From Tubiluchus corallicola (taxonomy: Eukaryota; Priapulida; Priapulimorpha; Priapulimorphida; Tubiluchidae): DNA of 64,000 bases. Below, in pieces: positions 3,701 to 30,620 of this stretch (position 1 is its first letter; each line of letters begins with the position of its first letter). The position numbers and the translations under genes are program-made. The stretch is taken from positions 496,001 to 560,000 of the forward strand of contig JAQGDQ010000057.1 in the NCBI GenBank assembly GCA_030141605.1. The letters run 5' to 3'. Under the pieces are notes generated by a model. That model was not told where the DNA came from. It did no database searches and saw only the letters and a list, made by a program, of their open reading frames with translations.

Positions 3701-4825
3701 GAGTTGTTGTTATTTTACACTATGAGTAGGTAGTGATTTTCTTTTTTTGCCACGTGACAATGTCAATGTGAATTTACCAGATTTTCTAATGAGATTTCCA
3801 CATCTTATTTTGATAAGTTCACCACTCTTTTTCACATAAATAATTCATTTAAAAGTACATTTTTTATTAACACATTTTAATGAACCTATATTAACGAGGG
3901 TAAATGCATATCAATTTTTTGCACAATGATGTAAGAAAATAACAATATGTGTGGTTGTTAGACATGGTATCCAGGCATCTTAGATCATTTAAAATAAAGT
4001 TTTTAGACTATTGTTCGGCCATACTATCGAGTAAAAGTAACAAATCTGAAGGAAAAGTATGGGTAAAGAATACGTCACCACATCCAAACCCAGACAAGTT
4101 ACATATACAATTACCTGATTATTAAGTAAAGCTGATTAAATCACATGAATCAATTCTTGGATAAATGCCTCTTTAGTACTGGACAGTGGACAGGCATAAT
4201 TAAAAACAGAACAAAAACAAAAGCTAACACAAGCATACTAAAACTCAGAATGCAATACAATAAAAAACTTCGTGCATAGACTTTGTTTCCATTTTTCTTG
4301 CAGAATTTTTTCTTTTTTTCATTTTCAAAGATTCCATATGGTAGCAACTATTTGTATTATGAAGTTGAACTTGGTGTTGTGATTGGACGACATGGTAAGA
4401 ACATTCAGCAAACTGAAGCAATGGAATATGTAGGTGGATATGCACTAGCACTGGACATGATTGCACACGAATTACAATCCTATGCCAAAAAGAATGGTTA
4501 TCCTTGGCTCATAGCAAAAGGCTTTGACACATCGTGTCCGGTCAGTGAGCTGATTTCGACCTCACAAGTTCCCAATCCGCATGACGTCGAGTTGTGGCTA
4601 AAGGTTAATGGTACCATAAAACAGAAGGGAAACACATCTAACATGATGATGACAATACCGGAACTACTGAGTTATGTTAGTCAGTATATTACTCTAGAGG
4701 AGAGTGATTTGATACTGACTGGTACACCTGCTGGTGTAGGACCAGTGTATCATGGTGATGTAATTGAATGTGGCCTCGCCCAGCTGCTTCAGATGCAGTT
4801 TACTGTAAAGAATGCACCAGTTTAA
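756..4825 (+). CDS. FAHD1: FAHD1-like acylpyruvase / oxaloacetate decarboxylase, three exons
   Basis: Exons 756-829, 3417-3513 and 4331-4825 join in frame (666 nt) into 221 residues, matching the usual size of FAHD1. In the family this mitochondrial enzyme hydrolyses acylpyruvates and decarboxylates oxaloacetate using Mg2+. Visible hallmarks are GVGRNY (residues 19-24), the metal ligands E68 and E70 in YYEVELGVV, D99 in ALALDM, the WLIAKGFD lysine segment and the signature LTGTPAGVGP near the C-terminus. All introns have GT/AG ends: TACAG|GTAAAA, TCATAG|GG, TTA|GTAAGT and AAAG|ATT. The start ATG lies in AACATCATGGC. From memory of human FAHD1, the lid-helix residues H30 and E33 are catalytic; here the His position is Leu27 (NYRDLIAE) while the Glu is kept (E30). 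Identity as an FAH-superfamily member is near certain; FAHD1 rather than FAHD2 is supported by the short length. Confidence 0.93.
1507..2330 (-). mobile_element. Decayed non-LTR retrotransposon (reverse transcriptase remnant) in FAHD1 intron 1
   Basis: Read on the minus strand, frames broken by stops encode reverse transcriptase palm motifs: QGDTLSPLFVMAFNPILDYL (around 2210-2290) and AYVDDLTILIQKVGKHKELL, with the YVDD active site near 2145. The following connection region (LLGATFATSTPQ..., near 1950) reaches about 1507. The motif style resembles the R2/Dong-type or RTE-like LINE groups, but the clade is uncertain. Several stops and frame changes show it is dead. Minus orientation opposite to FAHD1 is typical of tolerated intronic insertions. 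Confidence 0.75.
3514..4330 (+). other. FAHD1 intron 2
   Basis: AT-rich intron with donor TTA|GTAAGT and acceptor TTTTCAAAG. No embedded gene or repeat is recognised. Confidence 0.7.
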
Positions 4826-9900: not shown

Positions 9901-9922
9901 AAAAACGGGGAAAACCGTTTTT
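9901..9922. promoter_or_regulatory. Palindrome AAAAACGG-GGAAAA-CCGTTTTT
   Basis: Eight-base perfect arms with centre GGGAAAACCG, close to the Dorsal-type GGGAAAACC core. It is the second copy of the motif seen at 9683-9700, both upstream of the STING-like start. Confidence 0.3.
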
Positions 9923-10094
9923 CAAATCGCGGTGTTTGCATCGTTCTTTCAAACCTCGTTGTACGAGTGATTGCTAGAATTTTAGAAAACAGTCAGGTTT
10001 TTTGACATACGATTAGATTAGGTCGTATTGGGTTATTGGAACCGCGTTTTTTTAAAATTATAGAGTAAACTGCTGGAAATCTTGCTCTTGAGAA

Positions 10095-10179
10095 ATGGAC
10101 AGTGGTGATTTTCCTCCGGATGCTGCCCAAGGATTGGCTTGGGGATATTTCTTGGGATTTCACAACATAATTTTGCCAG
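10095..10179 (+). CDS. STING-like exon 1: start of domain 1
   Basis: Encodes residues 1-28 with [17 protein letters not shown], the dimer-interface/ligand helix of STING. The residue equal to human Ser162 is Gly17, and Tyr167 is Phe22. Donor CCAG|GTAAGTG leaves phase 1. Confidence 0.85.
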
Positions 10180-13100
10180 GTAAGTGGCTCTGGAAGAGCG
10201 CCTGTTCGAAATGTAACTGAGCATTTATTGTAATTTTGTAAAGTTGCATGTCATGATGTTATTTTTTTAACTAGCACTCAGTAGAATGAGTTATTGGCGT
10301 TATGATCTGTAATTTATGTTGATACTAGTTTTTATATCATAGTATGTAGCGTATATGTCATTCTACTAGAGCATTTTGTTGTACTTTGTCAAACTTATAT
10401 TTTTGTATAAACTTCTGCTTTAGTTTTAACTTCGGCTCATGGTTGACTTGGTGACCATTAGGCATTAGTCTTTTCACCACCTTCTCCATTTCTGTGTTAA
10501 CTGTTATTTTGATTTTGTTGTTTTTTTGCAGTAAAAGAAATTAATAATAAAATATACATGTTCATTCAGTCTTAGAGCCCACAGGTCAGATGGCGAAAGG
10601 CCTGATGGAATGGCTTTAACTCCTTCGACTGAGGGTAGTTCACTTCTTTGGGATATCACTTGTATGGATACATTGGGCACCTTCAAATTTAGGTGGTTCG
10701 GCAGGTTATGCGGCTTAATTAGCTGAAAATAGAAAACGTAGTAAATACAACCAACATTGCATTTTGTGCAATTGCCATTGAAACCTCTGGCACCCTTGGT
10801 ACTGAAGGAAAGAAGTTTATTAAACACATTTGGCTAGCTTGTGCGATTAGAAAATGACAAATTGGAAAAGAAAGAATTAAAAAAGTGGATGGAAAATTGC
10901 TATGACGAAGAATCGAAAGCGGCAGTTACAGCCTGATTTTCAGTGAGTCAAATTTGAGGCCCTGCATGAGTCATGAAATGGACGGGGCTTCATGCTTTTT
11001 TTTAGGCTGGATCTGCTCTACAGTTTCTGGGCTGGGGCAAAATTTTTTGGTATGTGAGTAGGTGGGGTGTAGGGCTTGTGCTTGGCTAAATATGGGCCAT
11101 TTGTGTACAGGAAAATGTTCTGCTAGGAGACAAAAACTGAGGCCGTGGGGTCAGGGCAACAATGTCTTGTAGTGTATCAAATGAAAGGCCTCGATGAGGC
11201 GAACCGAAAGGTAAGAGTTGCACCCAAATTGGTTGACCCCTGACCCGCTAGGGAGAAAAGAATGAAATTGAAGAAACGTAGGCACCAATGCTTCAATGTC
11301 AAGCACCAGTAGCTTGTAATGTATCAAATGAAAGGTCTTGATAAAAGAAATTAAGGGGTATGAGTTACACCCAAATTGGGTGGCCCTGAACCCTTAAAAG
11401 GTGAAAACCAAAACTAGGGAGTCAGGGGGACGAATGCTTCAAATGTTAAGCAATCAGTAGGTTGTAGTGTATTATGAAAGGTCTTACGGAGACGAATTCA
11501 TTAGTGTACATTGACTCGCATATATGATTGACCCTTGATTCACGTAGAACTGATCAAAAAGTAACAAATGTTGTCATTGAAATTATTATTGTCAAGCACA
11601 ACTTTCTTACGTACATATTGTTAAAGGAAAACCGGACAAGTGATTAGACTCAGTCTCATTTTAATTTACTGTTCAAAATGTACATTTTGTTGCCTATAAA
11701 AGTTAGGAATTGTTTCTAACATTTGAATAATTACCTTGGAAAGTTAATTAACGGCAACCGAACACAGCTATCGCTTATGTCACAAACTAACCACAGTTTG
11801 TACAATGGTAGGCCGCTTCCATGTGTGTTAAGCACTTTTGCTTAAGCAAAGATTGCTATAAGATGCTGATGTGATGTCACAAAAATGAGCTCTACGCACA
11901 CAAATGCTGCAAGTCATGATCATGCTTACCACGGTACTGCGCCTAGTTGCCGACCACGCGAATGTGACAAAAAGACATCATTGCCAGTCATAGTGGATTT
12001 GCTGAGCCGCGCATAGCTTTGAAAACTTGTTTAACAAAATTTAACTATCCGTGGTAATTATTGTGGTAAAAATCTGTGGCAGTTTTCAATATTTTAGAGC
12101 ATACTTTATTTTGAACTAATGTCTACACAATTGCCCGGTTTTCCTTTAAATATTTTGGAAAAAAAATTTATGTCTAAATACGAAATGTTGCCAAACTTAT
12201 GTCACTTGAAGTATCTCATGTCACAGTTTTTGATTCACGGGTCACTAGTTATGAGTCAAAAAATATATACTAGCTATGATTTGTAACACACACACTTCTT
12301 TTAGGCTAAACTACTGTATTGTGGCCTTTTTTCATATGCTTGCAAAGTACCTAAAATTGATTTGGAAAGACCAAGGAAAATTGTATAAGGCTCTTTAGTA
12401 AAAATAATAATAATAATACTTGAAGAATTTCTCGTGCATGTAGTAAAATAAAATGTACTCTTTCAAGAAAAAATCGGTTTACTAATCAGAAGTCACTTGG
12501 AAGGAACCGGTATCGATATCTGACCAACTTCAACTCCAGCTTAAAACATTCAAGAGAATGAGCTTAAAATATAAACATGAATGCTGTACCTTAAACTACC
12601 TTTACTTTTAAAACTTTTAATATAGATTCTACCAGTACTAGTTAGTTAGTCGGGTTAAATAAAATATCTTAAAGTGAGGAATTAAGAGTCAGAAGTAGAT
12701 TTTGATGTGCTTTTATGTGGTTCCACATATTTTCATGGATGTAGCATAAATACACATAATTATAGAACAATACTGTTGTTCGTTCTAGTGTCTGTTCTGA
12801 CTTCTAAATCAGAACTGACACCTAAAAGACGCATATAGAACTTTCTTGTCACAATTATACAAACACACGCTATGTCATGTTAGTTTGTTCATTTACTGAT
12901 AAATTTCTGTGTCCTTGTTTTGTTAGTTTGGGCCCCTGGACTATGAGGCCTTGGGCTGAAACCCACTTAGCCTATGCGTTAATAAGACATGGCCCACATG
13001 TTAATAAAACACAGCCAGTAGCCTGCAGTCAAAATCATCTTTTGCTAAAAAATTAAATTCCCTTTTTTCTGTCTGGTTGCCTTTCAGAAGTCTGCTGAAA

Positions 13101-16100
13101 AGGTAAGACCTGAGCTCCCTATTCAGTAAGATTAATGGATGATAGGCCTATTTGGTTATATTACGTATCTAACATGTATCTTTCTATTAGGTTTTCAAGA
13201 TTTCGTTTCTTCATCAAAGGAATTTGGCAACAAAATAAAGTTCAAGAGGTTTTTTATGTTGATGCCAGAGGACTGTTACTGTCCAAAGAGTCTTGCTGGA
13301 GCCGACAGTCGGATAGAGCATGTGGGTAATCTGGATGATCGTCAGCTGAGTAGAGCAGGCAGTGTGAGCCGAAACTATGGCAAAAATTCAGTTTACAAGC
13401 TCACAAGACAAGGGGTATTAATTTAAACATACATAATGTTGAACTTGGAATTTTCTATTTTCTGTATACCATATAACCCCTCTGCGTGCATATAAAATTT
13501 GCTTTCTTTTTATTGTTCGTTGTACAGGGTAGTACAAGTATAGAGTCCCTCCCTCAGATTACAGAAAATCATGTCTTGAAGGCATACATGTACATTCCAC
13601 AGAGAATCATGAATGTTTCAGCATTGTAAAGAAAACTTCATAGATTTTTTGTTCAGACATTTTCCTTACAGGTGATGCTTTAGTCACCTGCATCAAAAGG
13701 CCACACTCATGGATATCTCGGCTTCAGCGGTCTAATGCATAACAATGTCCTTTACTGAGCCTGTCATTGCAGTAAATTTTTTTCAGCTACCAGTTCCACA
13801 GACTCTGTTTTTTTCTCTTAATCCATTTGTATCGCTTGTGTTAAAATAACTTGTGGATTACAAAATGTCAAAGTGTTGTACATGTTTCCATTTTTATTGT
13901 ACTTATGGCAAGTAAACAAGTTATGACAGAATCTACAAATATCAACGTTAATATAAACTACATTGTTAATCAGAATTAAAAGACTTATAAATATCATTAT
14001 GTGGCGTCAGTAGTTAGTCACTTAATGATTTTTTATACAGTGTATTGCAAAAATACTTAGTTTCAAATGTCCATGTTTCCATTTCATGTCTGTCTGGTAC
14101 AGTAATTCCAGTGCACAGTATGTGTGTTTCACATGATATGTGCTTGAGTTAGTGCTTGCTGTATGCTTGAGTATAAGCTTGTCGTTTTGCACGCTTGTGC
14201 GTTGTGGGTAGTATGGTTATGCAGAGGCTGTGTGTGCAGTGGATTACTGGGATTTGGGGTGTCACTTATTTAAAACAAATGTGTTTGTGTCACAAATATC
14301 ACTTCACTAGATTTAATTACTATAATATTCCATTTTGGAGGATTAATGTTGCCAGAGATTTTGCAGCATTTGCTGCGCCAACTCTGTAGGATAAAATATA
14401 TATTACAACATGTCAAACATATAGGTTTCAAGGCTGTTTGACATCTCTTCTATTAAAATGTTACTTATGCATTTTTTGGTTCGATTGTGAACTGCAATAG
14501 TTACAGTACATCCTGCAACAGGTTGCCACTCCACTCATATTTTTACGTCACATGTCACTGCTGAAAACTACTTTCTATTTTGCTTGAACTTTGTTCTATT
14601 ATTCTATCTTTGTTTTTCTCTATTTTTTATTATAAATTCTTTCTCTTGATAGTTTCTTAGCCTTTCCACTTTTCATAGTGGTTTTTAAGCTCTGCCGTTT
14701 AACCACTGTGCAGCATAAATTTCTGGTTGATAAGAGTAGTTTAATCAACAATAGGTTGATTTCTGGTTGATCAAGAACCGTTTCATTACATATGGTTTAT
14801 TTAATTAACAAATATAAATTTAGACTCATTTTAATTTATTTTGTTCATGTGTCTTGTAACAGTGTAATAGTGTTGTCGCTGTATATTCTATGCGTATTCT
14901 TTTGAAAAAAATTATATTTTGTAATTTTATGCTGTGCGTTCTGTAACTCAACCTTTTAGTTGTAGTGATAAATAAACTTACATATTTACCAGATAAGTTA
15001 TTATGTACTTTAGTGACTGTATTATTGCAGTTCTGTTACAATTATTGTATTTTTTTCTAATGTAGCACATAATAGTTCTGCAACAATAACAGTAATTGTA
15101 ATGTAAAATTATGTAATGCTGAATTACCGTATATACTTATGTACAAGTCGATGTGCATTTTAAGACCAAAAATTGCATTATTTTATATATTACCTGTGTA
15201 CAAGTCGACTTTAAAATATTAAGATCTTCCAGAGTAAATGATGTCAACAATGGCCGAGTAATAAATCAATAGCCTACTGTGTTAGTGTGCAAGATACATT
15301 CAAGTGCCTGGGCCGAGTATATTATACCTACCTGATGTATATATTCATGTTGAGGGCATTACTAAAATAAATTACAGTAATATTTGTTAATTTGGTGAAG
15401 TATTGTCAAGATGCGAACATTCTCTGATATGAGGTATCACAGTATGAGTGTTTGTTCAGTCCAGCATATAATGAAGGATTATTTCTTTGCATATTCGTAT
15501 TATAGACGACTCTTTAGCGACATCTCTCAAAAACATATCTTAAATATAAGTTGACCCCAAAAATTTCACCTTAAAATCGCCTCCCAAAAATTCGACTTGT
15601 ACATAAGTATGTACGCTAAATTAAGAAATAACCACACAAGAGAGTCATCCAGCATTGGCAACAGGTTTTCGAGTTGTTTTGCTGCTGTTTTGCACTTGAT
15701 TATTTGAAGTACGTGTATGTCTAAGACCCGTGTCACACAGAGAAAGCCATAATCCGTAAGCCATAAGGCGCATGTTGTAATCCGAATGTCCAAAATGTCA
15801 AAAACTGGATGCAGTTGCATTATGGTTTATAATACAGCATGTTAAAAAACAAAAGCACAAACGGACAAAACTAACTACGTAGGTTAGACCCATTTATAGC
15901 AACAGGCAAAGTGAAGAAGAATTTGCGACATTATTTCAAACAAACAAGTCACAACGAAAAAATTTTAACTACGTTAGAATATCTGTCATATCATGTTATT
16001 GGATTAACAGACTGTCAGTTGCATACACTGTATAATATGATTGACTGGTATCCTGCCTCCTGCACGTAGTGTACATTTCTTATGTGCGCTGTAGAATACG

Positions 16101-19100
16101 ACAGTCATAAATAAGTATTATGGGTTGAAAATGCTTTTTAATGTTTATAGTACATCAGCGTTATAAATTCGTAATTTTGTAAAAGAATTATACACCATAG
16201 GAACCACAAATATGCAAATTATCCCGTTAACGAAGGCGAAAAGGCCAAATTCATTTCGCAATAAGGCGCATTATGAAAAGCTCAAAATTCCTTATAAGAA
16301 ATGTACTGCAGATTATGGTTGACAGCTTACAGTAGGCAAACCACGTTTGGCGTAAGACGGCAAATGGATTATCTGTGTGACAGGGACCATCTGTTAGCAT
16401 GTATTCACTTTTCATGAGGAGTCTTTTTCTCCTTACGGATTATGTCCAGCTCTGTGTGACATAGGCCTAATGTTGTTCTTGATGCTATCATTTACAAAAG
16501 CAATTACAATAATTACAAAAAGGCACGAAATAAATTTAATAGCTACAACAGGAAACTCAAAAATAAATATTATATTAATAAATGCAATGATGCAACTACA
16601 CCTAAGCAAAAATGGCGTTTAATTAATGACGTACTTAACAGATACAGAAACGATCAATTACAAATAAATAGTTTACGAGAAAATGACAGTATAATATCTG
16701 ATCCAGTTGACATTGCTAACAAATTAAATTCCACATTTATCAATCTCGGAAAATTTGACAACTTGCCACACCAACATAATGCAAATATACACAATATATA
16801 CAAAAACCAATCAGTAATACAATCCACTTTCTCATTTACTAACGTCACAGAATACGACATCTTTAGAATATTAAACAGTTTAAATATAAATAAAGGAAGT
16901 GGACCCTCAGACATGCCAATAAAGATCTTAAAAGACTGTGCCAGCATCATTACTCCTCATCTAACATATATCACAAACCAAGTCTTAATGCGCTCAGAAT
17001 TTCCAGCAGTGTGTAAACAAGCAAACATAACTCCAATACACAAGAAAGATGCTAAAGATGATGCTAAAAACTACAGACCAATCTCAGTAGTGCACGTACT
17101 AGCCAAAGTATTTGAAAGAGTTATCTACAACCAAATAAACCATTACATTGAAAATAATAAGTTACTGTCAAATCATCAATTTGGTTTTAGAAAACTACAT
17201 TCTACAATAGAGGCGATAATTGATGCCACTGAAAAGTGGCGTTACAACTTAAATAAAAATAAATATATAACAGCAGCATTTTTAGATCTAAGTAAAGCTT
17301 TTGACAGCCTCGATCACAATTTACTACTAGACAACTTACGCCAACTAGGATTCGATTATACTTCTCTCAAACTAATTAATAATTACCTACACAATAGAAA
17401 ACAAAGAGTCAAACTGAACAAACACACTTTTTCAACATGGGACACACCACAGAGAGGCATCCCACAAGGTACGATATTAGGTCCATTACTCTTTTGTTTA
17501 TACGTTAATAAAATTCATTTAGTTTTACATAATTCAGACTTAACACAATATGCCGATGATACAACACTCTATACAGCACACTCAGACTTTCTAACATCAA
17601 AAAATAATCTAGAAAAAGACATAACAAATATAAATGCAGCATTTAACTATTTTGGTTTAAAAATGAATGATGATAAGACAGAATTTATGGTAATATCACC
17701 CAAATCTAATGACATTACTTCTAATGCAACACTAAAAGTAGGTGACTGTTCCATAGAACAAGCAAAAACTGTAAAATTTTTAGGCATTACTGTCGACAAT
17801 AAACTCACTTGGGATGAACAGTTTCATCAAATACACAACAAGATGGCATTAAGCACGACATTCTTACGCCAAACCAGAGGCCATCTAACCAAGAAAACAA
17901 AAATTCTCATCTACAAAAGTCTAATATTACCACATTATCTATATGGTTGCACTTTACTTCAAAACGTCAAACATGAAAACTTTAGAAAACTAAATACAAT
18001 GCAAAACTACGCACTTAGATTAATTCATGGCTACTCTAACAAAACTGCTAAACAACATGCTGCTTCTGCAACAAGCTTAAGAACGTCCACAAAAATACCA
18101 ATATTAGAAGCCTATCGAGATTACAAAACACTGATATTTCTTTATAAATATATAAATAAACTGAGCATTCCATTTATAAACAATCCCTTAGCATTTATTC
18201 CTGATACCACATTGAACACTAGAACATACAATTTAAAGCAAATTACAGTAAACAATAAATTTGGAAATAACTCTATATCAAAACAGGCCATACATTTATG
18301 GAACTTACTACCCAGTGAAATAAAACAAATAGAATCTCTCCACCACTTTAAAAAGAAATTAAAAGAATATCAATATAACAGGTTTCAACTTCCACCTTGT
18401 GCATCTGATACTAATTACACAGACTCCACTTTCATATACCCCCGCCCCTGACTCCATATAATGATTAAAAATGAAATTTTTTAAAAAAATTATGTAATGT
18501 AATACGTGTTATGTTAGTTTCGTGTTTCGTAATGTTAAATGTATAAATAGTGTGCACTATGTAATGTAAAATTTAATGTACTTTCCTGTAATTGTTTGTA
18601 AAAATATTTTAATATGGTATTTATAAATATGTTCATTATATTGTATATAGTTTGCACTTTAGTTTTTTTTAGTATGCACTGGACGCATTTGTCTTGAACA
18701 GTGTTGTTATTTTAACATTACGCTGAGGCTAACTCAATTTTATTATAATGAGGGAACCGTTTTTATGACAAATAAAGAATTAATATATAATATATATATA
18801 TATAGGTTGATACTTACTTTGTGGCAGAATTCTCCACCCCTTTATTGACCATGTACGAAATGTCACAAAGTGATGACATCACCATCTCAAAAGAGGACCT
18901 TCACAAGCAGATGGTGGAGTTTGTCAGGACAGTACGCTATCTTCTCTCTTCCAACACTGCGTTTGCCCATCAGTATGAAATAGTCACTGTGAAGGATTTG
19001 AGCAGTGTGTCTGATTTGGTTGCTGAACGTATCGCTTCAGGTGGAGAGGAACCAACAGTGCCGGATCCTCAAGCTGTCCCTATTCATGTTGGTGCTGGTT

Positions 19101-22100
19101 TGGCATGGTCTTACTATCTTGGATTCTTAAAAATCATATTACCAGGTGAGTTTAATAGAATTAAATTATAACAAAAAAGAATATAGTTTATTAAATTTGG
19201 CACTATTAACTTGTATTCATTTTTGTTTGAAAACTTTCAGGATTAACAATACTTGAACCTCTTTTCTAGTTATTATTTATTAGCCAAGTTAATGTCATTT
19301 TCAGATTTTGATAAGTTTGTGTCATCATCCCCAGACTTTGGTACAAAAATCCACATCAAGCGATTGATTATATTACTGCCAGAGGATTGTAACTGTCCCG
19401 GGAATTTGACAGAGGCTGATCCCAATGTACAACATGCCGGCTTTTTGGGAGACAGAAAGATTGATAGATCGGGAAATATTAACCGAAACTATGGAAGGAA
19501 TTCCGTTTACAAAATAACGGATCAGGGTGAGGTAAGTGGGTTAACCAACAATAACAAAACATGAATGAAAAATGGTCACATAATTATAACAACATTGCAA
19601 CCACTAATAACAATGTTTATCATCAACTAAAACAAACCATATCAAAAACATCAATATCAACAATATTTGTTAAAGTAATAAAACTAACATCTGCAATGTT
19701 AGTATTATAGGACTACAGGGTAGATCTAGAACTTTAAGCTCTAAGAAATGTCTCTAAAGAATATTAAAGAATCCCTTTAAAAATCAGGCCTGTGGTAAAC
19801 AGTGATTGACATCCTGTGTATGTATATCTTTACCCAAGATCACTTGTAAGTTGTACGGCAGATACGATGGCAACACAGTCTATTGGACAACTTTTGCACC
19901 TGGTGGCTCAAACTTGATTATAAGTTTTCGTTAGAATTGCCATGATATAGTATATAGTTTTTGCTCTATTGTTTTATTTCAAGTTTAAAATTCAAATTGT
20001 GAGTTAGATATTTTAAACATAATTATTTAAGCAATATTATTCTGTAGTCTTCTGACCATATAATGTTTCAGTAATCATAACTGTCTAGTCACTGTCATAT
20101 AAACATAAAAAGAAATCTCATTCATAAAGAGCAAACAAACAAGTGACATACATATGCATGAAGATATGGCATTGACTGCAATGCTGTGATTTTCTTAAGA
20201 AAACATAGCTGTCTTTCTGACAGTAAGAAGTCTTCATTAAAAATATTGAAACTGATATTTTGGACTTGATTTTCGATTTCGTTAAAAATTTTCAAAATAA
20301 CAGTGTACTATATACATCCACCAAAAAATTTAAAAATTCAATTATAAGATTCTGAATTTACTTTTGGTATTACTGTATACTGCCTGTAATGTGTATAGCA
20401 CATGTACACTGTAATTAATTTTGTAGAACATATACATTTTTTTGCAAAAATTTTAATTGTACCTTTTGGTTTCCATTTATGTATTCTTTGAAAATTTTCT
20501 TTATTTGTTGTAAAAATTAAATGATAGCATTGTAGTTGTGGTGGACACGCTTTGTCTCATGGCAACCAATATTGCTAAGCTAAACCCCAGTCCGCCACTG
20601 TTTTAGACAACGTGATTGATAATATCAAAATGCAGAAAGCCTCAAAATTTATAAGCAAAATTATAATAACAGCTTTTCAAAGCAATGTTTCTATCTCTGT
20701 AATGGAAGCATTGTGTAAAATATACATGTGCATCATTCATGCTTAGGAGTAATGCAGTCTAAGTGTTTAAAGTGCATCAATGCGTATGTCATTCGGTTTG
20801 TCTTCAATCTACCTTTGCAGACATTGTATGCAGAATGTCAAAATAAAATAAAAGGGTGCCGTCTGGAACAGGATAGATTTTAAAAAGTGCTGATAAGTTA
20901 CAACTGTCGCTGTGTGTATGGGCCAGTCTCATGAAATTTGACAAAACAAATGTGCAAAAACTTGAAAATTCACACTTTGCAAACCTATCTTCAACCTTTA
21001 TGATATTGCATTTTGATTGTCTGGGTGCCTGTTCACCAAATACAGCATAGACTGCATTATAGCGGAGATATAGGTTAGTTAATTTTTAATCAGTCCTCAT
21101 GATGTCTACACGGGGCGCATGTACAACCATTTGTTGGACATACGGTTTTGGTATGTGGACGTAAGTCCGTGCTGGTGGACATTATAAATGGGCAATTCCA
21201 TGAGTGTCATGGAGTGACATTTGATTTGAAATTAATTTAATATTGTCTGTAACGTTTGTTGTACAACATTGTGCAACAGTACCAGATAGCCTGACTAAAT
21301 CAAAAACGACAATAAGTAGAACAATTCCTTGTGTTTTGCATTTTTATGCAAGACTATTATCTAATATAGGTAAAATGCTATTGTCTTACACTAATTTGTT
21401 AAAACTGGTGTGATAAAACTGAGACGCAATCAACGGTGATGAAACATTTGTCATGAAATGATACATTTAGTTTATAAATGAAGTCACTAATTAATACTGT
21501 AAGTGGAAACCCTCGTTGGGAGCTTGTTTAATTTGGGCTATTTAAAACATTTATATATTTCTAGCTAGACTGAAAACTTTATTAGACAGTTATTTAATTA
21601 ATAAGCAACTTCTAATCTGCTTAACTAGTATGCTCATACTACAGAGGTTTCGGCCTGAGTATTAATAGGTGCCATTTTGTTTATTTTAAACTAGAAACAT
21701 GCACACTATTATTATAAACTTTTTTGAAAACAATGTTATTAGTGCATAAGTTTCTTAGTATTTATTCATGTCTGCGGTTAGTGTTTACATGTATATTTTT
21801 ACAACCAATGTTTCTCCTTAACAGGGACAGATGTCCATGAACCAGGACAACTTTTGTGTGTTCCGGTCCTGGACGTCCTGGTTATGGACATTTTTAGATA
21901 AATACTTAATTTGCTACAGTACCTTTAAAACAAGCAATTCCTATTAATTACTAAATTAGCTAGTCTTAACTACTTGTAAACATCACGTAAACTATGATGC
22001 TAATGGTACTGTTTTCTAATTATGCATGTCTCGGTAATAGACACCTAATAGATGTACTCAAAAAAATATGCTAAATGTCCTATTGCCCCGCAAAAAGAAA

Positions 22101-25100
22101 TAACTAAAGGCGGTTGCCAAAGTTCTGTCACAAAATTAGATGTGACCATGGATATTCTTATTACTACACAATCCCTAGATAGACTACGCCTATTTAAACA
22201 ACTAATAGTGGATGTGCGCAACACTCCGCCATTTTACAGTGGTATAACTCGTGCTTTATTCCTATACTGTAATAGATTATGTGCATTAGTGTACTTCAGG
22301 AATCTGAGAAATTTCATTTCTGAGAAAGGAGGAGATAGCATAAAAAATTTGGAAGCACCTGAAAATTTTGGGAGGTTTTTACTGGTAGGGGTGAACATTT
22401 TGTACCAGAAAACGAATTCGAATCGAATCAAATTTGTGACTTTCGAATTCGAATCAAACCGGATTTCGAATTCGAGTCAAATTTGAAGTTACTTTGAAAG
22501 ATTTTCGAACCTTCAGTAAAAAGCGGTGTTACAAAGATCATGCATTAGGTCCTATTACTCGATTTTGTTCTGCAATAAAACCACTAATAATGAGTGTAAA
22601 AAATGCACACAGAAAACTCTACTAAATTGTGCTAATTGCGTGATGTTAAAAACATTTTAATAACAAAAGAACCTATCTGGTTGAAGTGCTGAATTATCTG
22701 AATCTATAGTTTTAGGTTCGAATCAAATTTGCATTAAAAAACACATTCGAGTCGAATTCGAACGTTCGATCCTCATCCCTATTTACTGGTTATTGACAGT
22801 GGTAGGTATTAACCTACATAATAATACCATGTAAAATGCTCACATACTAGACTTTCACTCTTAAACTAAATTCTGTAGTAAAAAATGAACAAACTGCATA
22901 GATCTGTCAAACGTGGACGTGTAACCAAGTAAAATAATACAGACACTTTCACATAATCCTCATACCAGGAAACAAAGTTATGGCTATAATTTATTGCACT
23001 TTACTGATGAAAGGTATTGTCAGAGTCCTTAGATGAAGCACAATTTTATTTGTACACTTGACAGTACAACAGTATATGACCATTTTGCAAAATAATACCA
23101 AATACTAAATGAAAGAAGCAAGAAGAATGCATATAGTCACGTTGTAATCATGGTGAGGTAATCCCACTGTAACATGGCAGCACAAGTTTTTGTCAGCAGT
23201 AGTGCAACAGCTCATCTAGAGATTATGTAGTGATATTATTATCTATGAGTGTGACTGTCAGCACAGATTTAGATGTGATCTCAGAGAGAGACTGCTAGTC
23301 GTGTGCAAAAAAGTAACAAAACAATGGGCACCATGTTGCTGAGTAAGCTGCTACTTTCTGCTACTTCTTTATTATACATGCATGCGAAGTTTTTGCAATT
23401 GTATTTTCATTACGTATGTAGTGAATTTGCATGCAAATAGTAAAATAGTTAAAAGTGCCAGCCTCCAGTGTTATCTATAAATGTTCAAATTGGGCAAAAA
23501 AAGCATCAGCAAGGTCGTTTTGCATTTAACAGCATCCTACATTTTCATTTAAGTAAAACAATATTATAGTATTTTTGTCGATGGTCTTTTATTTGTAAAA
23601 TGCTTTCAAAATATTCAAGAAACTGCAGGGCCGGCTCTACCACTAGACAAACTAGGCAGTTGCTTAGGGTGCCAAATTTTGGGGGAGTGCCAAATTCTAG
23701 AAAAAATTAAGCTTCCATAAATAATGATGTAGAAGAAATGCATAAGTATTTAGGTGTACAACACTAATTAAATGAAACGAATTGTATTATTTTCATGCCT
23801 GCATGATTCATCCACGATAATATGGAACGGTCTACCTGCAACAAACACTTTCTACTTTCGCTTTACTAGGTTTATATAGATTTACACCAATAATACTACT
23901 GACTACATTGCACTACTTTTGCTCATACTTTCTACTGTGTGCAACTATGCTTTGAGTAGCTGAGCAGTTTCTTGCAATAACATTTATCTAAACTTATAAG
24001 GAATTGAAGCCTTCAGCCTTCAAGGATTAATGCAGTAAACTAAAGGAAAAGGCTGGTGGACATTCAAGTAGTTGAACAGTAAAAAGATCCGCTGATGAAG
24101 TGTTTGCAACCAGACCAGAATTATGGTTGTGAAGATTATAAAAATAACGAAATGAAAATGCGAGAAAAAGAGGAATTATGGATTCAGAAGCTGTAGCCTC
24201 GAATCTTATGTATAACATACCATCGAAATTAATATATAGACTAGCAAAGGCCCTGCAAAAAAATTTGCGTATAAATTCACTTATAATCAATAATATGCAA
24301 ACATCCTACATAATCCTCATTTATAACGCAAAGGCAGTAGCAGCTTTTGCTGAATTAAAGTTATAAGCAGAGTATAATGGATGACATCAGAACAATGGCT
24401 TTGCGTCAGCAGTTTTCCAAGCGAAGATCGCCCGAAATGGAACCTCCAATCAAATCGTCACAGCTCCTCGGTGTGGAGACGTCCTGAAATATAGCCCACA
24501 CCATCGTGTAGCCCTGTTCCTCCTCTTTCTAAAGAGCTATGTATCTCCATTCGAGAGTCCCACCAGGCATCACTAGAACGTTAGTCCTGCAGGCTGTTTG
24601 GTCAAACTTTCGGAAAAAAATCGGAAGTTGGGTCCGGGAAAACGTCCGTTAAGGGACGCCGTGGCCCTCTCGCGACTTCTAAGTACGCCTACTACACCCA
24701 CCGTTCAACGAGCTATCTATCCATGGCATGCACCGCTCCCTGCCCATATCCTTTCTCCAGAAATAAGAGGTATACGTTTTGCAAAAAACGGCCGAAAATG
24801 GCCATTTTGGAGGTTTTTTGCCCCCGTTCCTCCCGTTGGGCCCGATTCGAAAATAAACCATCAATGGCACGACACTAGATCGAGACCTTTTGTTTGATAT
24901 ATAGATCGTCGCAAATGGTGCCGCCGTTGGAGCTGTAGCCTCCAATCTTATATATATATAATATTTGTATTAATATATATATATATATATATATATATTA
25001 AGCCCATGCCAGCAAAATTAATATGTGCGATATATACAACAAAAATTCAATTTTAAGGATGGGGGCAGTAGAGAAGCCAGATTTACCAATAGGCTGACTA

Positions 25101-28100
25101 GGCTGCAGTTTAGAGAGCTGTGGCAGCTCGTAGCTAAAATTAGTGGGGGGTGCTGCAAAATTAAATATTTTTAGCTATTGTTTTGATACTGAGTAAAACG
25201 AAACAAACATATGTAATTTCAATGTTGTAATCGTAATTTTAAACAAACAAATTTATATATATACAAACTTGATAAACTCCTAAACAAAAAACATTGTTAC
25301 CTTACGATTAGCCTAAATTGTCGCTGTTCAAGAATATGCCGATAAATGGCTTTTAAACACGTGGCAACTGACAACGCATGCTGTGTGAGCGACATACTCT
25401 TCCTACCTAAAGTGCACTGTCTTATCTCAGACATGTGTGCATGGCCGCCAAACACCGCATTGCACTTTGCTGTGAAGGAAATTGTACTTCCCTCACGTGC
25501 TCCAGTTCCGCACAAGTATAAAGAAAGAACTAAAGAAAAAAGACATAATAGTGAATATTATCGTCAATAATGAGTGAAAACAGAGGGTGCCACGGTACCT
25601 ATACACGAGCCGCCACTGTTAGAGAGGCAAATTTTGAGGGAAGCTAGAATTGAGGGGCTCAGTATTACAAATTCTTATTCTCCTTGGGAAATGCTTATGC
25701 TTTCATATTCTTATGAAGCACATATTTTATAACACACCTCAAGGAGTTGTTAAACCACATTTCATATAAGAGCCCATATAACAATATATGTTGTAATTTA
25801 TTGGCCAACAGTAATATGAAAACACTACAAATTGCAGCATAAATATAACATTTTTTAATATAATATAATATAACAGTGAAACGCCATTGAAAATACATGT
25901 TGACAAGTTCCTAACAGCTGCTGTTGCCCAACAACATGGCACCTTTAAGCGTGACTCTTTCGAACAAGTTTTCGAACCTTCAGTAAAAAGCAGTGTTACA
26001 AAGATCATGCATTAGGTCCTATTACTCGATTTTGTTCTGCAATAAAACCACTAATAATTAGTTTAAAAAATGCACACAGAAAACTAAATTGCTAAATTGT
26101 GCTAATTGCGTGATGTTTAAAACATTTTAATGACAAAAGAACCTATCTGGTTGAAGTGCTGAATTATCTGAATCTATAGTTTTAGGTTCGAATCAAATTT
26201 GCATTAAAAAAACTCATCCAAGTCGAATTCGAACGTTCGATCCTCATCCCTATTTACTGGTTATTGACAGTGGCAGGTATTAACCTACATAATAATATCA
26301 TGTAAAATGCTCACATACTAGACTTTCACTCTTAAACTAAATTCTGTAGTAAAAAATGAACAAACTGCATAGATCTGTCAAACGTGGACGCGTAACCAAG
26401 TAAAATAATCCAGACACTTTCACATAATACTCATACCAGGAAACAAAGTTATGGCTATAATTTATTGCACTTTACTGATGAAAGGTATTGTCAGAGTCCT
26501 TAGATGAAGCACAATTTTATTTGTACACTTGACAGTACAACAGTATATGACCATTTTGCAAAATACTACCAAATACTAAATGAAAGAAGCAAGAAGAATG
26601 CATATAGTCACGTTGTAATCATGGTGAGGTAATCCCACTGTAACATGGCAGCACAAGTTTTTGTCAGCAGTAGCGCAACAGCTCATCTAGAGATTATGTA
26701 GTGATATTATTATCTATGAGTGTGACTGTCAGCACAGATTTAGATGTGATCTCAGAGAGAGTGTGCAAAAAAGTAACAAAACAATGGTGGGCACCATGTT
26801 GCTGAGCAAGCTGCTACTTTTGAATAGTGAATTTGCATGCAAATAGTAAAATACCGTATATACTCGCATATAAGCCGAATTTAGAACTATAAAATACAAT
26901 ACTGAAATCAGGGGGTCGGCTTATATGCGCATGAAACAAAATGAACACAAGGACAGACACTAATGCCAATTTTCCAGCCACACATTTTCATCGCTATCTG
27001 ACTCTTTATTTGGTTGTGTGTCACCAGTGGTGTATTGGAGGGGGATCGTGGGGAATCGCCGTCCACCCACTTTTTTTTAAGAAAAAATTCACATTTCAAT
27101 AAATGTCTGCTTTTTGTATTCATTAGATAAAAAATATTAAAAATGTATACGGGTTTGTAATGTAAAGTCAGACGATGAGGGTGGTAGTTGATGGTCGGCT
27201 TATATACGGGTTTTTGCAAAAACTGGCCATTTTAAAGCAGTTTTAGGGGGTCGGCTTATATGCGATGTAGGCTTATATGCGAGTATATACGGTAGTTAAA
27301 AGTGCCAGCCTCCAGTGTTATCCAGGTAATATTATAGCACTAGCCAACCCCATAAAAAAGTTTGTGCATAAACTCACAACAACACAACCACCACCACCCC
27401 ACTCACAACACACGACCCGCACCACACCACAACACCACACTGTAGCACACCACCTACACCACACCACACCACCACATTATCCACACCACATCACCCGCAA
27501 CACACCATTAATACCATACCACATCACCCAGATCAAACGTCACCACACCACTCCAACACCACACCCACACAACCTCCCCGCCATCCCCTACCACACCATC
27601 CACAGCACACTCACCACACCCACCACATCACATGGTGATGATGATGTTGATGACTATGATGCTGATGATAACAACAGTGATGACACCTACAACACCATCA
27701 CCAGTAGCACAAGATAACAACAAAACCATTCAAAACATTTTGCACAAAGTCAAACTGTGTGCTATAATAAATGCTATTAGTCTGTCTACCAATGATCAAC
27801 AATGCACAGACATTCTACATAGTTTTTTATTGTTCCTCAGATGATGATGGGCTAACAGAACTTAATTACATGTAAAATCCATAACACGGTCAAACGGCGG
27901 GTGAGAACAATGCCTGGAACAGCTGCAAAATTGATCAAACTTAAAGACAATGGATTTTCCAAATATCATGCAGCACAGGAGGGTTGTAAAAGAACTTTGA
28001 AACACACGTTTCCCGTTTCGTCTAGTTGACATCTCTCCTAGTAAAAACCTTCAGCATTTTGTAGACCATTCCGTCTTCTTTCTGCGGGTGCACTGATTTT

Positions 28101-29742
28101 ATTTCCCAGCATGCCCAAACAGTTGCACAAATTGAGTTCTTCTAGAGGCTGTTTGAGCAGTTTTCTGCAAAATTTGCGTGGTTGTGTCCGGGAAAACATC
28201 CGTCGCGGACGCCATGGCCCCCTCGCAAATTCTAAATATGCCTACTACACCCACTGCTGAATGGGCTATCTACCCATAGTAAGCACCCGGTGGGCCCGAT
28301 TCGAAAAATAAAGTCCCAATGAGACCACACTAGATCGAGACCTTTCGTTTGATATATATAGATCGCCGCAAATGGTGCCGCCGTCGAACTTTCGAAATAT
28401 TGTTCTATACGTAAGCAAGCAGTCCCTCTATACACTTTAACTAAATCTGTGGACTGTCAGCCATATCCTGGTGCATTCTGGGGTTGATTTTCAGATGCCT
28501 CTAGTAGCAACAAAAGTTTTAATTAAATTCCCAGTTGTGGACAATTTTTTTAGACATTAGTACATTTGTTGGTGGTTTTATTAAGAGCTGCCGACTTGGA
28601 AAAGCTTATGAATGTCAGCTATGCCCTAAATATGGGCTAATTACCACAAACACAAAAAATCTCGAAAGTTTAATACTTTTTGTGTTAGAAGATCATTTTG
28701 ACAAGTTGGTGAAGCAATAGACCGTCCCGGACATGAAAATCTCAAGCAATTTCTGCTTTCAAGTCCAACTAATGTGAACATACTGCACTTGTAATTTCTC
28801 AAATATGTTTGTTCTGGCAACAGACAACACAAACCAAAAATGGTGTAAGTTGATGGTGAAAACTAGATAAAATTACCAAAGGCACCATTTTGTAACATTT
28901 TGCAAGAATGGCCCATATAACAATTGCTAAAGTCTGCCTAACAGATTTAGTAGAGCAAGTTTCTGTTTGTCAATTTACAACCTATAATAATCTGAGAAAC
29001 AGTGGCAAAATACTGCTGAAGTTGAACACGTTATGTGGAACAGTCATTAAATTTATGCAAGAAACTTTTCCCTTAGGTGTCAACATTACTCAAAATCAAA
29101 TGATTAAATAAAATTCTCACTAGAAACTGAACTTGGACATAATGGGCAATGTCCATTATTCACCTGATTAACAATTTGTGAATGTAATCTATTCACATTG
29201 TACTTAGAGTAAAATATTTTAGCATAATAATCCAAATAGTTGCCTAAATATTAGCAGTTTTGCCAAGCAGTTAATTATAATACTTTAAAGTTACTTTACT
29301 AATATGTAATATGTAAATTTTATTACATTCCCAATGATTTTAATTTTATCTAACTCATCATTTTATATGTAGCCATTGCTGCTCATGTTTTTGATTTTAC
29401 AAGTTTGAAATGCTAGTTTTTGGCCTTTACCTGTAAATGTTTAATATGTAATAGTGTTGCTTCAGTTTCTAAAAAATTAGAACATTTTTTGCTAATTTTT
29501 AGGACAAGTATTTTGTGGCTGAGTGCCCTGCAGTACTGCTGACTATGTATGAGATGTTGCATCACAATAAGAATGTAACCTTCACCCAAGAAAATCTTGC
29601 ACAGGAACTGGAGCAGTTTCTCGCAACTTTGAAATGGCTTCTTGGTAAGAATGGAGACTGCAAGAACCAGTATGAGGTCATTCCTGTGAAGAAAATAAAT
29701 ACAATTTCTGGATTAATTGCAGTTGCTTTTTCTGGGGGTTAA
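10095..29742 (+). CDS. Tandem STING protein: two fused cyclic-dinucleotide-binding domains, no membrane domain
   Basis: Exons 10095-10179, 13191-13414, 18806-19145, 19305-19531 and 29503-29742 join in one frame (1116 nt, 371 residues). STING binds cyclic dinucleotides such as 2'3'-cGAMP and triggers innate immune signalling. Domain 1 covers residues about 12-178 and domain 2 about 197-371. Each has the helix motif GLAW(S/G)Y(Y/F)LGF..IILP, the PEDC.CP strand, the lid R.Y motif ([24 protein letters not shown]) and an AE...LLTMYEM segment. The linker (residues about 168-196) is acidic and proline-containing. The N-terminus is only about 11 residues before the domain, so the usual four transmembrane helices are absent, and no PxPLRTD-like tail is present. 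An in-frame TGA lies two codons before the ATG, so the start is firm unless position 10092 is a splice acceptor joining unseen exons. Family assignment is very strong. The exact C-terminus is less sure. Confidence 0.9.
10180..13190 (+). other. STING-like intron 1
   Basis: About 3 kb. It holds the tandem modules at 11120-11520 and a 14-base-arm hairpin at about 12788-12824 (GTGTCTGTTCTGA paired with TCAGAACTGACAC). A minus-strand open stretch at about 10560-10730 has coding-like composition but no recognised family. Confidence 0.6.
11120..11520. repeat. Tandem ~140-150 bp modules (TATCAAATGAAAGGYCTT core), copy A
   Basis: Three degenerate modules, each with ATCAAATGAAAGGYCTT followed by GTTGACCCNTGACCCGCTAGGG-like sequence. 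The same modules recur at 30130-30620, and the sequence before each block is also related (AATTTTTTGGTATGT). It is therefore an interspersed, probably mobile, repeat. Confidence 0.75.
13191..13414 (+). CDS. STING-like exon 2: domain 1 core and lid
   Basis: Acceptor TTTCTATTAG. Encodes residues 29-103, including LMPEDCYCP, Arg83 (human R232 position), and Arg89 and Tyr91 (human R238 and Y240 positions). Donor CAAGGG|GTATTA, phase 0. Confidence 0.88.
13528..13629 (+). CDS. Possible alternative last exon for the STING-like gene
   Basis: A good acceptor (pyrimidine-rich run then TTGTACAG) is followed by 33 codons and TAA. It is in the phase needed to continue directly from exon 2 (phase 0). Use of it would give a short isoform with an incomplete domain 1, lacking the E260/T263 segment. 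There is no family match, and chance is possible at this length. Confidence 0.3.
   Translation, partial: GSTSIESLPQITENHVLKAYMYIPQRIMNVSAL
13630..15126 (+). other. STING-like intron 2, left part
   Basis: AT-rich intronic DNA with no recognised gene. Confidence 0.6.
15127..15616. mobile_element. MITE with CCGTATATACT ends and TA target duplication
   Basis: Left end CCGTATATACTTATGTACAAGTCG and an inverted right end reading AGTATGTACGC are flanked by TA. Length 490 bp, no coding capacity. It belongs to the same end-sequence family as the element at 26854-27292. Confidence 0.75.
15725..16466. mobile_element. MITE-like element with GTGTCACACAGAG terminal repeats
   Basis: Left end GACCCGTGTCACACAGAG and inverted right end (reverse complement GCCTATGTCACACAGAG) continue into a matching CATAATCCGTAAG on both sides. 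CTAA flanks both ends, a possible 4-bp target duplication. A further internal end (about 16370-16387, TCTGTGTGACAGGGACC) suggests nested or rearranged copies. Confidence 0.65.
16471..18803 (+). mobile_element. 5'-truncated LINE (CR1/L2/Jockey type) with intact RT frame
   Basis: An open frame running from about 16471 to TGA at 18449-18451 encodes reverse transcriptase without an endonuclease domain. RT motifs seen in order are [59 protein letters not shown] (YADD codons 17549-17560) and [12 protein letters not shown], then a CR1/L2-like C-terminal domain ending [12 protein letters not shown]. The frame lacks any ATG near its beginning, which supports 5' truncation. A 3' UTR of about 330 bp with AATAAA near 18773 ends in a TA repeat that touches the exon 3 acceptor. 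The unbroken frame implies a fairly recent insertion, in sense orientation. Confidence 0.9.
16763..18451 (+). CDS. LINE reverse transcriptase ORF (5'-truncated)
   Basis: 562 codons counted from a TTG, with no stop for a further 95 or so codons upstream, so the true start is missing. It encodes the RT fingers, palm (YADD) and thumb plus a C-terminal domain. It copies element RNA during target-primed reverse transcription in the family; without the endonuclease this copy is not autonomous. Confidence 0.88.
   Translation: MPHQHNANIHNIYKNQSVIQSTFSFTNVTEYDIFRILNSLNINKGSGPSDMPIKILKDCASIITPHLTYITNQVLMRSEFPAVCKQANITPIHKKDAKDDAKNYRPISVVHVLAKVFERVIYNQINHYIENNKLLSNHQFGFRKLHSTIEAIIDATEKWRYNLNKNKYITAAFLDLSKAFDSLDHNLLLDNLRQLGFDYTSLKLINNYLHNRKQRVKLNKHTFSTWDTPQRGIPQGTILGPLLFCLYVNKIHLVLHNSDLTQYADDTTLYTAHSDFLTSKNNLEKDITNINAAFNYFGLKMNDDKTEFMVISPKSNDITSNATLKVGDCSIEQAKTVKFLGITVDNKLTWDEQFHQIHNKMALSTTFLRQTRGHLTKKTKILIYKSLILPHYLYGCTLLQNVKHENFRKLNTMQNYALRLIHGYSNKTAKQHAASATSLRTSTKIPILEAYRDYKTLIFLYKYINKLSIPFINNPLAFIPDTTLNTRTYNLKQITVNNKFGNNSISKQAIHLWNLLPSEIKQIESLHHFKKKLKEYQYNRFQLPPCASDTNYTDSTFIYPRP
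18806..19145 (+). CDS. STING-like exon 3: end of domain 1, linker, start of domain 2
   Basis: Encodes residues 104-216. It finishes domain 1 ([13 protein letters not shown], with Glu111, Thr114, Pro115 and Thr118 at the human E260, T263, P264 and T267 positions), gives an acidic linker ending ...PIHVGA, and begins domain 2 with [16 protein letters not shown]. One uninterrupted exon crosses the join, so the fusion does not rest on a gene-model guess. The acceptor is preceded by a TA repeat rather than a pyrimidine tract. Confidence 0.92.
19305..19531 (+). CDS. STING-like exon 4: domain 2 core and lid
   Basis: Acceptor CATTTTCAG after a 159-bp intron. Encodes residues 217-292 with [15 protein letters not shown] (like human MADPN), Arg271, Arg277 and Tyr279. 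Donor GAG|GTAAGT, phase 0, the same as the exon 2 donor. Confidence 0.92.
19532..22385 (+). other. STING-like intron 4, left part
   Basis: No gene recognised. It contains an imperfect 16-bp-stem hairpin at 21832-21890. A 144-codon open frame starting at 22052 has no recognisable family and runs into the hAT-type MITE. Confidence 0.55.
21832..21890. repeat. Imperfect inverted repeat (hairpin)
   Basis: TGTCCATGAACCAGGAC pairs with GTCCTGGTTATGGACA across a 26-base spacer, with about one mismatch. Function unknown. Confidence 0.7.
22386..22781. mobile_element. hAT-type MITE with 8-bp target duplication TTTACTGG
   Basis: It begins TAGGGGTGAAC and ends ...CATCCCTA, with GAATTCGAATCGAATC-like inverted repeats inside each end. 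The octamer TTTACTGG flanks it at 22378-22385 and 22782-22789, the 8-bp duplication expected of hAT transposition. No coding capacity. Confidence 0.85.
22502..23475. repeat. Direct duplication, copy 1 (MITE-empty form)
   Basis: About 970 bp nearly identical to 25969-27322. The copied segment starts inside the hAT MITE at 22386-22781 and includes its right target duplication, so the copy was made after that MITE inserted. It carries the empty TA site (GTAAAATAGTTAAAAG, about 23440-23455) for the MITE in copy 2. Confidence 0.9.
23629..24000. repeat. Possible MITE end (GGCCGGCTCTACCACTAGAC)
   Basis: A GC-richer start followed by CTAGGCAGTTGCTTAGGGTGCCAAATTTTGGGGG resembles a common MITE-like terminus and the sequence around 25062-25109 and 25627. 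The right boundary is not resolved. Confidence 0.35.
24588..24922. repeat. GC-richer interspersed repeat, copy A
   Basis: Contains GTCCGGGAAAACGTCCGT, CCTACTACACCCACCG, GTTGGGCCCGATTCGA and ATCGTCGCAAATGGTGCCGC. All recur in the same order at 28142-28393, where about 95 internal bases are missing. Open frames on both strands here are by-products of the base composition. Confidence 0.8.
24943..25000. repeat. (TA)n microsatellite
   Basis: Two TA runs directly after the GC-richer repeat. Confidence 0.9.
25118..25618. mobile_element. hAT-type MITE with 8-bp target duplication TTAGAGAG, nested in another repeat
   Basis: It begins CTGTGGCAGCTCGT and ends ACGAGCCGCCACTG, imperfect inverted repeats. 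TTAGAGAG occurs immediately before (25110-25117) and after (25619-25626). The flanks joined without it (GGCTGCAGTTTAGAGAGGCAA) resemble the element end at 23629, so it appears inserted in an older element. Confidence 0.8.
25969..27322. repeat. Direct duplication, copy 2 (with MITE insertion)
   Basis: The same sequence as 22502-23475 with few substitutions, a deletion of roughly 60 bases near 26815-26830, and a 439-bp MITE inserted at a TA. Confidence 0.9.
26854..27292. mobile_element. MITE with CCGTATATACTCGCATATAAGCCG ends, TA target duplication
   Basis: Terminal inverted repeats of about 24 bp are flanked by TA (26852-26853 and 27293-27294). The duplicated locus at about 23440-23455 has the uninterrupted sequence with a single TA, which directly proves the element boundaries. 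An extra inner copy of GGTCGGCTTATAT lies near each end. Non-coding. Confidence 0.95.
27375..27632. repeat. G-poor CAC/ACC-rich simple repeat
   Basis: About 250 bases made almost only of A and C with scattered T, followed by GATGAT triplets. The resulting plus-strand His/Thr/Pro open frame (27277-27717) is low complexity and not a credible gene. Confidence 0.85.
28142..28393. repeat. GC-richer interspersed repeat, copy B
   Basis: Matches 24588-24922 in order and orientation, with an internal deletion of about 95 bp. Confidence 0.8.
28400..29502 (+). other. STING-like intron 4, right part
   Basis: No certain gene. A plus-strand frame at 28535-28720 and a second at 28908-29111 look like broken pieces of a coding sequence, possibly a transposase, but show no motif I can name. 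Confidence 0.35.
29503..29742 (+). CDS. STING-like exon 5: end of domain 2 and stop
   Basis: Acceptor TAATTTTTAG nearly 10 kb after exon 4. Encodes residues 293-371, [13 protein letters not shown] onward: Glu299 and Thr306 are kept, but the human T263 and P264 positions are Ala302 and Val303. The frame stops soon after NTISGLIA, where domain 1 reads SSVSDLVA. No close downstream AATAAA is seen (the first is near 31.87 kb), so the end or the last exon may differ. Confidence 0.85.
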   Translation, partial: DKYFVAECPAVLLTMYEMLHHNKNVTFTQENLAQELEQFLATLKWLLGKNGDCKNQYEVIPVKKINTISGLIAVAFSGG

Positions 29743-30129: not shown

Positions 30130-30620
30130 GAGGGGGGTTAGGAATATCAGTGCTCCCAGTGTCGAGCAACAGTAATGTGTAATATATCAAATGAAAGGCC
30201 TGATCGAGGTGAATCGAATGGTATAAGTTTTGCTGATTTTGATTGACCCCTGACCCCGCTAGGGCACAAAAACCAAAATCAGGGGTTGGGACACAAGTGG
30301 TTCCACTGTCAAGTAACAGTACTTTGTACTACATCAAATGAAAGGTCTTGATGAGAAGAATGGAATGGTGTGAACTATGCCCAAATTGGTTGACTCTTGA
30401 CCCGCTAGGGGGCAAAAACCAAAATTGAGGATCATGAAGACAAATGCTTTTCATTGTCCAGCAGCAACAGGTTGTAGTATATCAAATGAAAGGTATCAGC
30501 AAGGCTAAATAAATAAGTCATTTGTTGACCTTTGACCCTGTAGTCACAGGTAAAGTGGAAGTTCCAGTTTTAATATCTTATAATACATCAAATGTAAGGT
30601 CTTTATGTGACAAATTGACT
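30130..30620. repeat. Tandem ~150-bp modules, copy B
   Basis: Four modules with the ATCAAATGAAAGGYCTT core (near 30182, 30331, 30479 and 30587) and TTGACCCNTGACCC segments. Same family as 11120-11520, about 19 kb away and in the same orientation. Confidence 0.75.

What the first reader, a model, noticed from the sequence alone, without database searches (positions are those of the whole stretch)
10095..29742. Single gene encoding two STING ligand-binding domains in tandem
Seen: exon 3 alone carries the end of one STING domain, a short linker and the start of a second, so the fusion is inside one exon. All five exons splice into 371 codons with no frame break. Known: canonical STING has one ligand-binding domain and works as a homodimer. 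Inferred: the two domains could fold as an intramolecular pseudo-dimer that binds a cyclic dinucleotide on its own. From memory, unusual STING architectures including tandem ones have been noted in some molluscs, so this may be a variant rather than the first case.
Basis: partly seen in the sequence, partly recalled or inferred. Interest (0 to 1): 0.9.

Follow-up and report, generated by a model that had tools for sequence, protein, structure and literature searches.

The report
Soluble double STING gene in an animal
This animal gene joins two copies of the STING sensor domain (normally one per protein, working in pairs) into one short soluble protein without a membrane anchor, and every STING-domain gene found in the same genome is built as such a double, which suggests a rebuilt version of a well-known immune sensor.

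Summary
Five exons (10095-10179, 13191-13414, 18806-19145, 19305-19531, 29503-29742) with GT/AG introns join into one 371-aa frame holding two complete STING ligand-binding domains (Pfam STING_LBD, two stretches, 245.8 bits, E 2.4e-73). Exon 3 carries the end of domain A, a ~15-residue linker and helix 1 of domain B. A second complete gene (contig C818) has the same five exons and phases at 60% aa identity, with synonymous sites near saturation, so both domains are under purifying selection.

The protein has no transmembrane segment, TIR domain or C-terminal tail. Both domains keep the dimerization stem and main cyclic-dinucleotide contacts (aromatic 167, R232, R238, Y240, E260) but differ in a conserved way at pocket positions 162, 263 and 264, suggesting an asymmetric built-in pseudo-dimer.

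No paper in the searchable library describes tandem animal STINGs, but many papers are not held. Folding, ligand binding and expression are untested. Best reading: a soluble intramolecular STING pseudo-dimer acting as cyclic-dinucleotide receptor or buffer.

The parts
9907..9916 (+). GGGGAAAACC, kappaB/Dorsal-like decamer 188 bp upstream of the ATG; the only copy in the window; the same decamer lies (other strand) upstream of the C818 paralogue
   Evidence: post hoc, function inferred
10095..10179 (+). exon 1: ATG (G at -3 and +4), 10 residues, then helix 1 (stem [10 protein letters not shown]) of STING domain A; in-frame TGA directly upstream
13191..13414 (+). exon 2: middle of domain A, including lid with R232, R238, Y240 (human numbering)
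   Evidence: Pfam
16460..18451 (+). 663-codon reverse-transcriptase frame (LINE-type) inside intron 2; not part of the gene product
   Evidence: RVT_1, E 1.5e-36
18806..19145 (+). exon 3: end of domain A (E260, T263, P264), linker of ~15 residues ([15 protein letters not shown]), helix 1 of domain B ([10 protein letters not shown])
   Evidence: tblastn (5e-68)
19305..19531 (+). exon 4: middle of domain B, including lid with R232, R238, Y240
   Evidence: Pfam (4.6e-10)
29503..29742 (+). exon 5: end of domain B (E260, A263, V264), stop codon TAA at 29740-29742; no C-terminal tail

Best explanation
The gene encodes a soluble, cytosolic, 371-residue tandem STING. Shown: two complete STING ligand-binding domains in one chain; stem and main ligand contacts kept in both; no membrane segment, TIR domain or tail; the same architecture in a paralogue under purifying selection. 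Inferred: domains A and B pair with each other as a V-shaped pseudo-dimer that binds one cyclic dinucleotide, as the homodimer of ordinary STING does, with the lids (R238) closing over it. Because A and B differ in a fixed way at pocket positions 162 (G/S), 263 (T/A) and 264 (P/V), the pocket is probably asymmetric and may favour a dinucleotide with two different bases made by the genome's cGAS-like enzymes. Lacking an anchor and effector, it either buffers (sequesters) the messenger or passes the signal on through a partner or through chain-to-chain oligomers; I lean slightly to a soluble receptor or buffer rather than an ER-based adaptor.
For: Two STING_LBD domains; relatives with solved ligand complexes align over 150-170 residues of each domain; R232, R238, Y240, E260 and aromatic 167 kept in both domains (the aromatic and R238 contacts are called universal in PMC9980059); stem GLAW-YF/GLAWSYY kept, a stem required for dimerization of metazoan STING (PMC12424679). 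Paralogue with the same exon phases, 60% aa identity with 71% of four-fold sites changed, equally in A and B. A domains group together (96/94) and B domains together (99/96), so the internal duplication is older than the gene duplication. 20 fixed A/B differences. No hydrophobic segment reaches a TM threshold (best 19-residue mean 1.33) and the C818 gene has a TATA box ~100 bp before its ATG, arguing against a missed upstream TM exon. Candidate cGAS-like enzymes with Mab-21 and ankyrin domains and a kept metal-binding motif are present, as is an IRF domain.
Against: No structure model, binding assay or transcript. A and B could pair between chains instead of within one. Pocket substitutions (G162 in A; A263 and V264 in B; F167 in both) might weaken binding. 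No effector or tail explains signalling. The exon 2 donor is weak.
Confidence: 0.6

Rival explanations
1. Cyclic-dinucleotide sponge: the soluble tandem protein binds the messenger but signals nothing and dampens the pathway, like the human TM-lacking STING isoform that sequesters cGAMP.
For: No TM, tail or effector. A soluble human STING isoform that sequesters cGAMP is on record (Wang et al. 2018, title in the reference list of PMC10962316).
Against: No single-domain signalling STING was found in this genome for it to dampen, although one could have been missed.
Confidence: 0.3
2. Open oligomer: domain A of one chain pairs with domain B of the next, so that ligand drives filaments or rings of covalently linked domains.
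For: STING signalling works through oligomers in animals and bacteria (literature knowledge; PMC9402430 abstract); the linker is short and rich in Pro/Glu.
Against: Nothing in the sequence prefers this over pairing within the chain; a ~15-residue linker can in principle span a domain.
Confidence: 0.2
3. Two adjacent single-domain genes, or a decaying copy, misread as one gene.
For: Weak exon 2 donor; other copies in the genome are decayed (C1793) or interrupted (C1326).
Against: Exon 3 fuses both domains in one open frame here, in C818 and in C1326; all five window exons are open; strong purifying selection against C818; shorter branches than C818 in the tree.
Confidence: 0.04
4. A tandem STING that is membrane-anchored through an unrecognised upstream exon, i.e. 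TM-STING-STING.
For: Some STINGs carry the TM region on separate exons; an AG lies directly before the ATG (10091-10092), so exon 1 could be internal.
Against: In-frame stop just upstream of the ATG, good start context, and a TATA box close to the start of the C818 paralogue.
Confidence: 0.1

Closest known systems
Metazoan TM-STING (human STING; coral Sp-STING1/3, PDB 8gjz, 8efm, 8efn)
   Same: ligand-binding domain with the same stem, lid arginines, aromatic stacking residues and E260
   Different: one domain per chain, four TM helices, homodimer; here two domains per chain and no TM
Oyster TIR-STING (PDB 6wt6/6wt7)
   Same: invertebrate STING domain without the four-TM region; aligns to domain B at 86.8 bits
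   Different: TIR effector fused to a single STING domain; here no TIR and two STING domains
Soluble human STING splice isoform that sequesters cGAMP (Wang et al. 2018)
   Same: ligand-binding domain without membrane anchor
   Different: splice product with one domain, not a dedicated tandem gene
Bacterial STING (CBASS effectors)
   Same: same domain superfamily; weak prok_STING match just below cut-off (25.6 against 27.1 bits)
   Different: single domain with TIR or TM effector in an operon with a CD-NTase
Class II and III STING loci of the same genome (C235, C414, C2160, C1844, C2192; C2317)
   Same: also tandem; class III shares the class I intron positions and phases
   Different: strongly diverged; class II domain A is one exon and has lost R232

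Membership tests
STING ligand-binding domain family (PF15009) | profile match above the curated cut-off | tested here: met
   domain A 124.5 bits, domain B 125.8 bits, cut-off 27
STING ligand-binding domain family (PF15009) | conserved ligand contacts (aromatic 167, R232, R238, Y240, E260; T263/P264) | tested here: met
   all but T263/P264 kept in both domains (Y167 is F); T263/P264 kept in A, A/V in B
STING ligand-binding domain family (PF15009) | binds a cyclic dinucleotide | not testable with these tools
   needs an EMSA or ITC
Canonical metazoan TM-STING | four N-terminal transmembrane helices | tested here: not met
   no segment reaches a TM hydropathy threshold; only 10 residues before helix 1; TATA box near the C818 start
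Canonical metazoan TM-STING | one ligand-binding domain per chain, homodimer | tested here: not met
   two domains in one frame; oligomeric state not tested
Vertebrate STING | C-terminal tail with TBK1/IRF3 motifs | tested here: not met
   the chain stops at the end of domain B
TIR-STING | TIR domain fused to STING | tested here: not met
   Pfam finds only STING domains
Intramolecular STING pseudo-dimer | dimerization stem kept in both domains | tested here: met
   GLAWGYF in A, GLAWSYY in B; stem role from PMC12424679
Intramolecular STING pseudo-dimer | the two domains pair within one chain | not testable with these tools
   spliced chain not accepted for folding; needs structure or SEC-MALS

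The most novel reading that the evidence does not exclude
In this lineage the obligate STING homodimer has been replaced across the whole gene family by covalent tandem pseudo-dimers (three ancient classes), mostly or entirely soluble, with no single-domain membrane STING left; the tandem pocket is asymmetric and tuned to a mixed-base cyclic dinucleotide.
Probability: 0.35. Interest if true: 0.78.

Novelty: new variant of a known kind. Interest (0 to 1): 0.62.

Why it matters
STING is described as an obligate homodimer, and surveys list TM-STING, TIR-STING and, in fungi, PNP-STING (PMC10732462, PMC12424679, PMC9980059). A natural covalent dimer lets the two halves of the pocket evolve apart, which a homodimer cannot do. 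That makes a testable case for how asymmetric messengers are read. A genome in which every detected STING gene is tandem, and the best one is soluble, would show that cyclic-dinucleotide sensing in animals does not need a membrane-bound homodimer.

Tried and rejected
Organism identity: genome statistics in papers gave nothing; no COX1 contig; no molluscan-type haemocyanin match, which shows little because nothing rang in the controls. Seven Hox fragments, one of Ubx/Lox2/Lox4 type, suggest a protostome, probably a lophotrochozoan (my reading). RuBisCO search was only a negative check for plants. Search with a coral STING domain for a missed single-domain gene found only the known tandem loci. 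NG86 dN/dS for window against C818 failed through synonymous saturation (dS undefined), so codon-position and four-fold counts were used. The exon upstream of the class III gene has no Pfam match. Relations between classes I, II and III are unresolved because of long branches.

Full report
The observation. The window is G000:C460:496001-560000 of a 343.5 Mb animal genome. The five exons were re-derived from splice borders: 10095-10179, 13191-13414, 18806-19145, 19305-19531, 29503-29742. All four introns begin with GT and end with AG; the phases are 0/1/0/1/0; the frame is 371 codons plus TAA. Pfam reads two STING ligand-binding domains in the chain (245.8 bits, E 2.4e-73) and each half alone scores about 125 bits against a cut-off of 27. 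The nearest solved structures are coral STINGs and the oyster TIR-STING. Exon 3 carries the end of domain A, a linker of about 15 residues and helix 1 of domain B in one open frame, so the fusion is in the DNA and does not rest on a splice guess.

More than chance. A search of the whole genome found a second complete gene on contig C818, minus strand. It has the same five exons with lengths 106/224/349/227/222 against 85/224/340/227/240 and the same phases. Amino-acid identity is 60% in both domains, while 71% of comparable four-fold sites differ and codon positions differ by 28%, 23% and 64%. That is strong purifying selection on both domains since the two genes split. A third copy on C1326 has an AT-rich insert flanked by a repeat of the target sequence in exon 4, and only exons 3 and 4 were found; C1793 is decayed.

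Anatomy. Helix 1 starts at residue 11; there is no hydrophobic segment long enough for a membrane helix (best 19-residue mean 1.33), no TIR domain and no tail after domain B. In the C818 gene a TATA box lies about 100 bases before the ATG, which argues that exon 1 really is the first coding exon. In human numbering, both domains keep the aromatic at 167 (as F), R232, R238, Y240 and E260, and both keep the dimerization stem (GLAWGYF, GLAWSYY). The aromatic and R238 contacts are described as universal (PMC9980059) and the stem as required for dimerization (PMC12424679). Position 162 is G in A and S in B; 263 and 264 are T-P in A and A-V in B; both differences are shared by the two paralogues, among 20 fixed A/B differences.

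History. In a tree of single domains, the two A domains group (96/94) and the two B domains group (99/96), so the internal duplication is older than the gene duplication. The rest of the genome adds more. Five loci (C235, C414, C2160, C1844, C2192) hold a diverged class II: a single-exon STING domain followed 1.5-2.5 kb later by a second one. C2317 holds class III: two diverged STING domains, each split into three exons with the same phases as class I. Class II domains compared with C1844 give dN/dS of about 0.13-0.23, while the most recent class II copies give values near 1. Every STING-domain match is in a tandem gene, or in a fragment of one (the C2185 match is a lone exon 1). I did not splice classes II and III to full length, so that their two domains share one transcript is inferred from order, strand and spacing. 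A single-domain STING could be missed if its exons are short or withheld.

Mechanism. Shown: two domains, kept contacts, kept stem, constraint, no anchor. Inferred: A and B pair within the chain and bind one cyclic dinucleotide in an asymmetric pocket. The genome has candidate cGAS-like enzymes, some with ankyrin repeats and a kept GS...DEFDF motif, and an IRF domain, so a messenger and a response are plausible. Whether the protein signals or buffers is open; a soluble human STING isoform that sequesters cGAMP is a precedent for buffering (Wang et al. 2018, cited in PMC10962316).

What is known. Surveys of animal STINGs describe TM-STING and TIR-STING (PMC10732462; PMC9980059) and a fungal PNP-STING (PMC12424679). 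Searches for tandem or double STING found no description. The library lacks most subscription papers, and databases may list such architectures without comment, so I do not claim first discovery. Verdict: real, a new variant of a known kind, of fairly high interest, with the mechanism untested.

Noticed in passing
window 16460-18451 (+): 663-codon open reverse-transcriptase frame of a LINE-type element in intron 2 (RVT_1).
   Followed up: partly
window 9907-9916; L023 upstream of the C818 exon 1: GGGGAAAACC occurs once in the window, 188 bp before the ATG, and again (other strand) upstream of the C818 gene, which also has GGGGATCCCC 25-30 bp before its TATA box: possible NF-kappaB control (post hoc).
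   Followed up: partly
L024-L028 (C235, C414, C2160, C1844, C2192): Diverged class II tandem STING loci; the three youngest copies have dN/dS near 1, as expected for relaxed or diversifying selection.
   Followed up: partly
L029 and L059 (C2317): Class III tandem STING with an open donor after domain 2, so the gene may continue; an upstream exon (NNHAHGGQYSEDEAK...) has no Pfam match.
   Followed up: partly
L030 (C1326), exon 4: AT-rich microsatellite-like insert flanked by a 14-base direct repeat interrupts the exon.
   Followed up: no
L056-L058 (C716, C1992, C1560): Single-exon proteins of 720-900 aa with ankyrin repeats and a Mab-21 nucleotidyltransferase domain: candidate cGAS-like receptors.
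   Followed up: partly
window 4280-4825 (+) and 39432-39779 (-): Neighbouring exons match fumarylacetoacetate hydrolase and Med14 C-terminal domain.
   Followed up: no
window ~11170-11490 and ~30180-30350: Short dispersed repeat units (TATCAAATGAAAGG...) in intron 1 and downstream of the gene.
   Followed up: no
window 55132-55638 (+): Open frame made of a short tandem repeat ([14 protein letters not shown]-like units).
   Followed up: no
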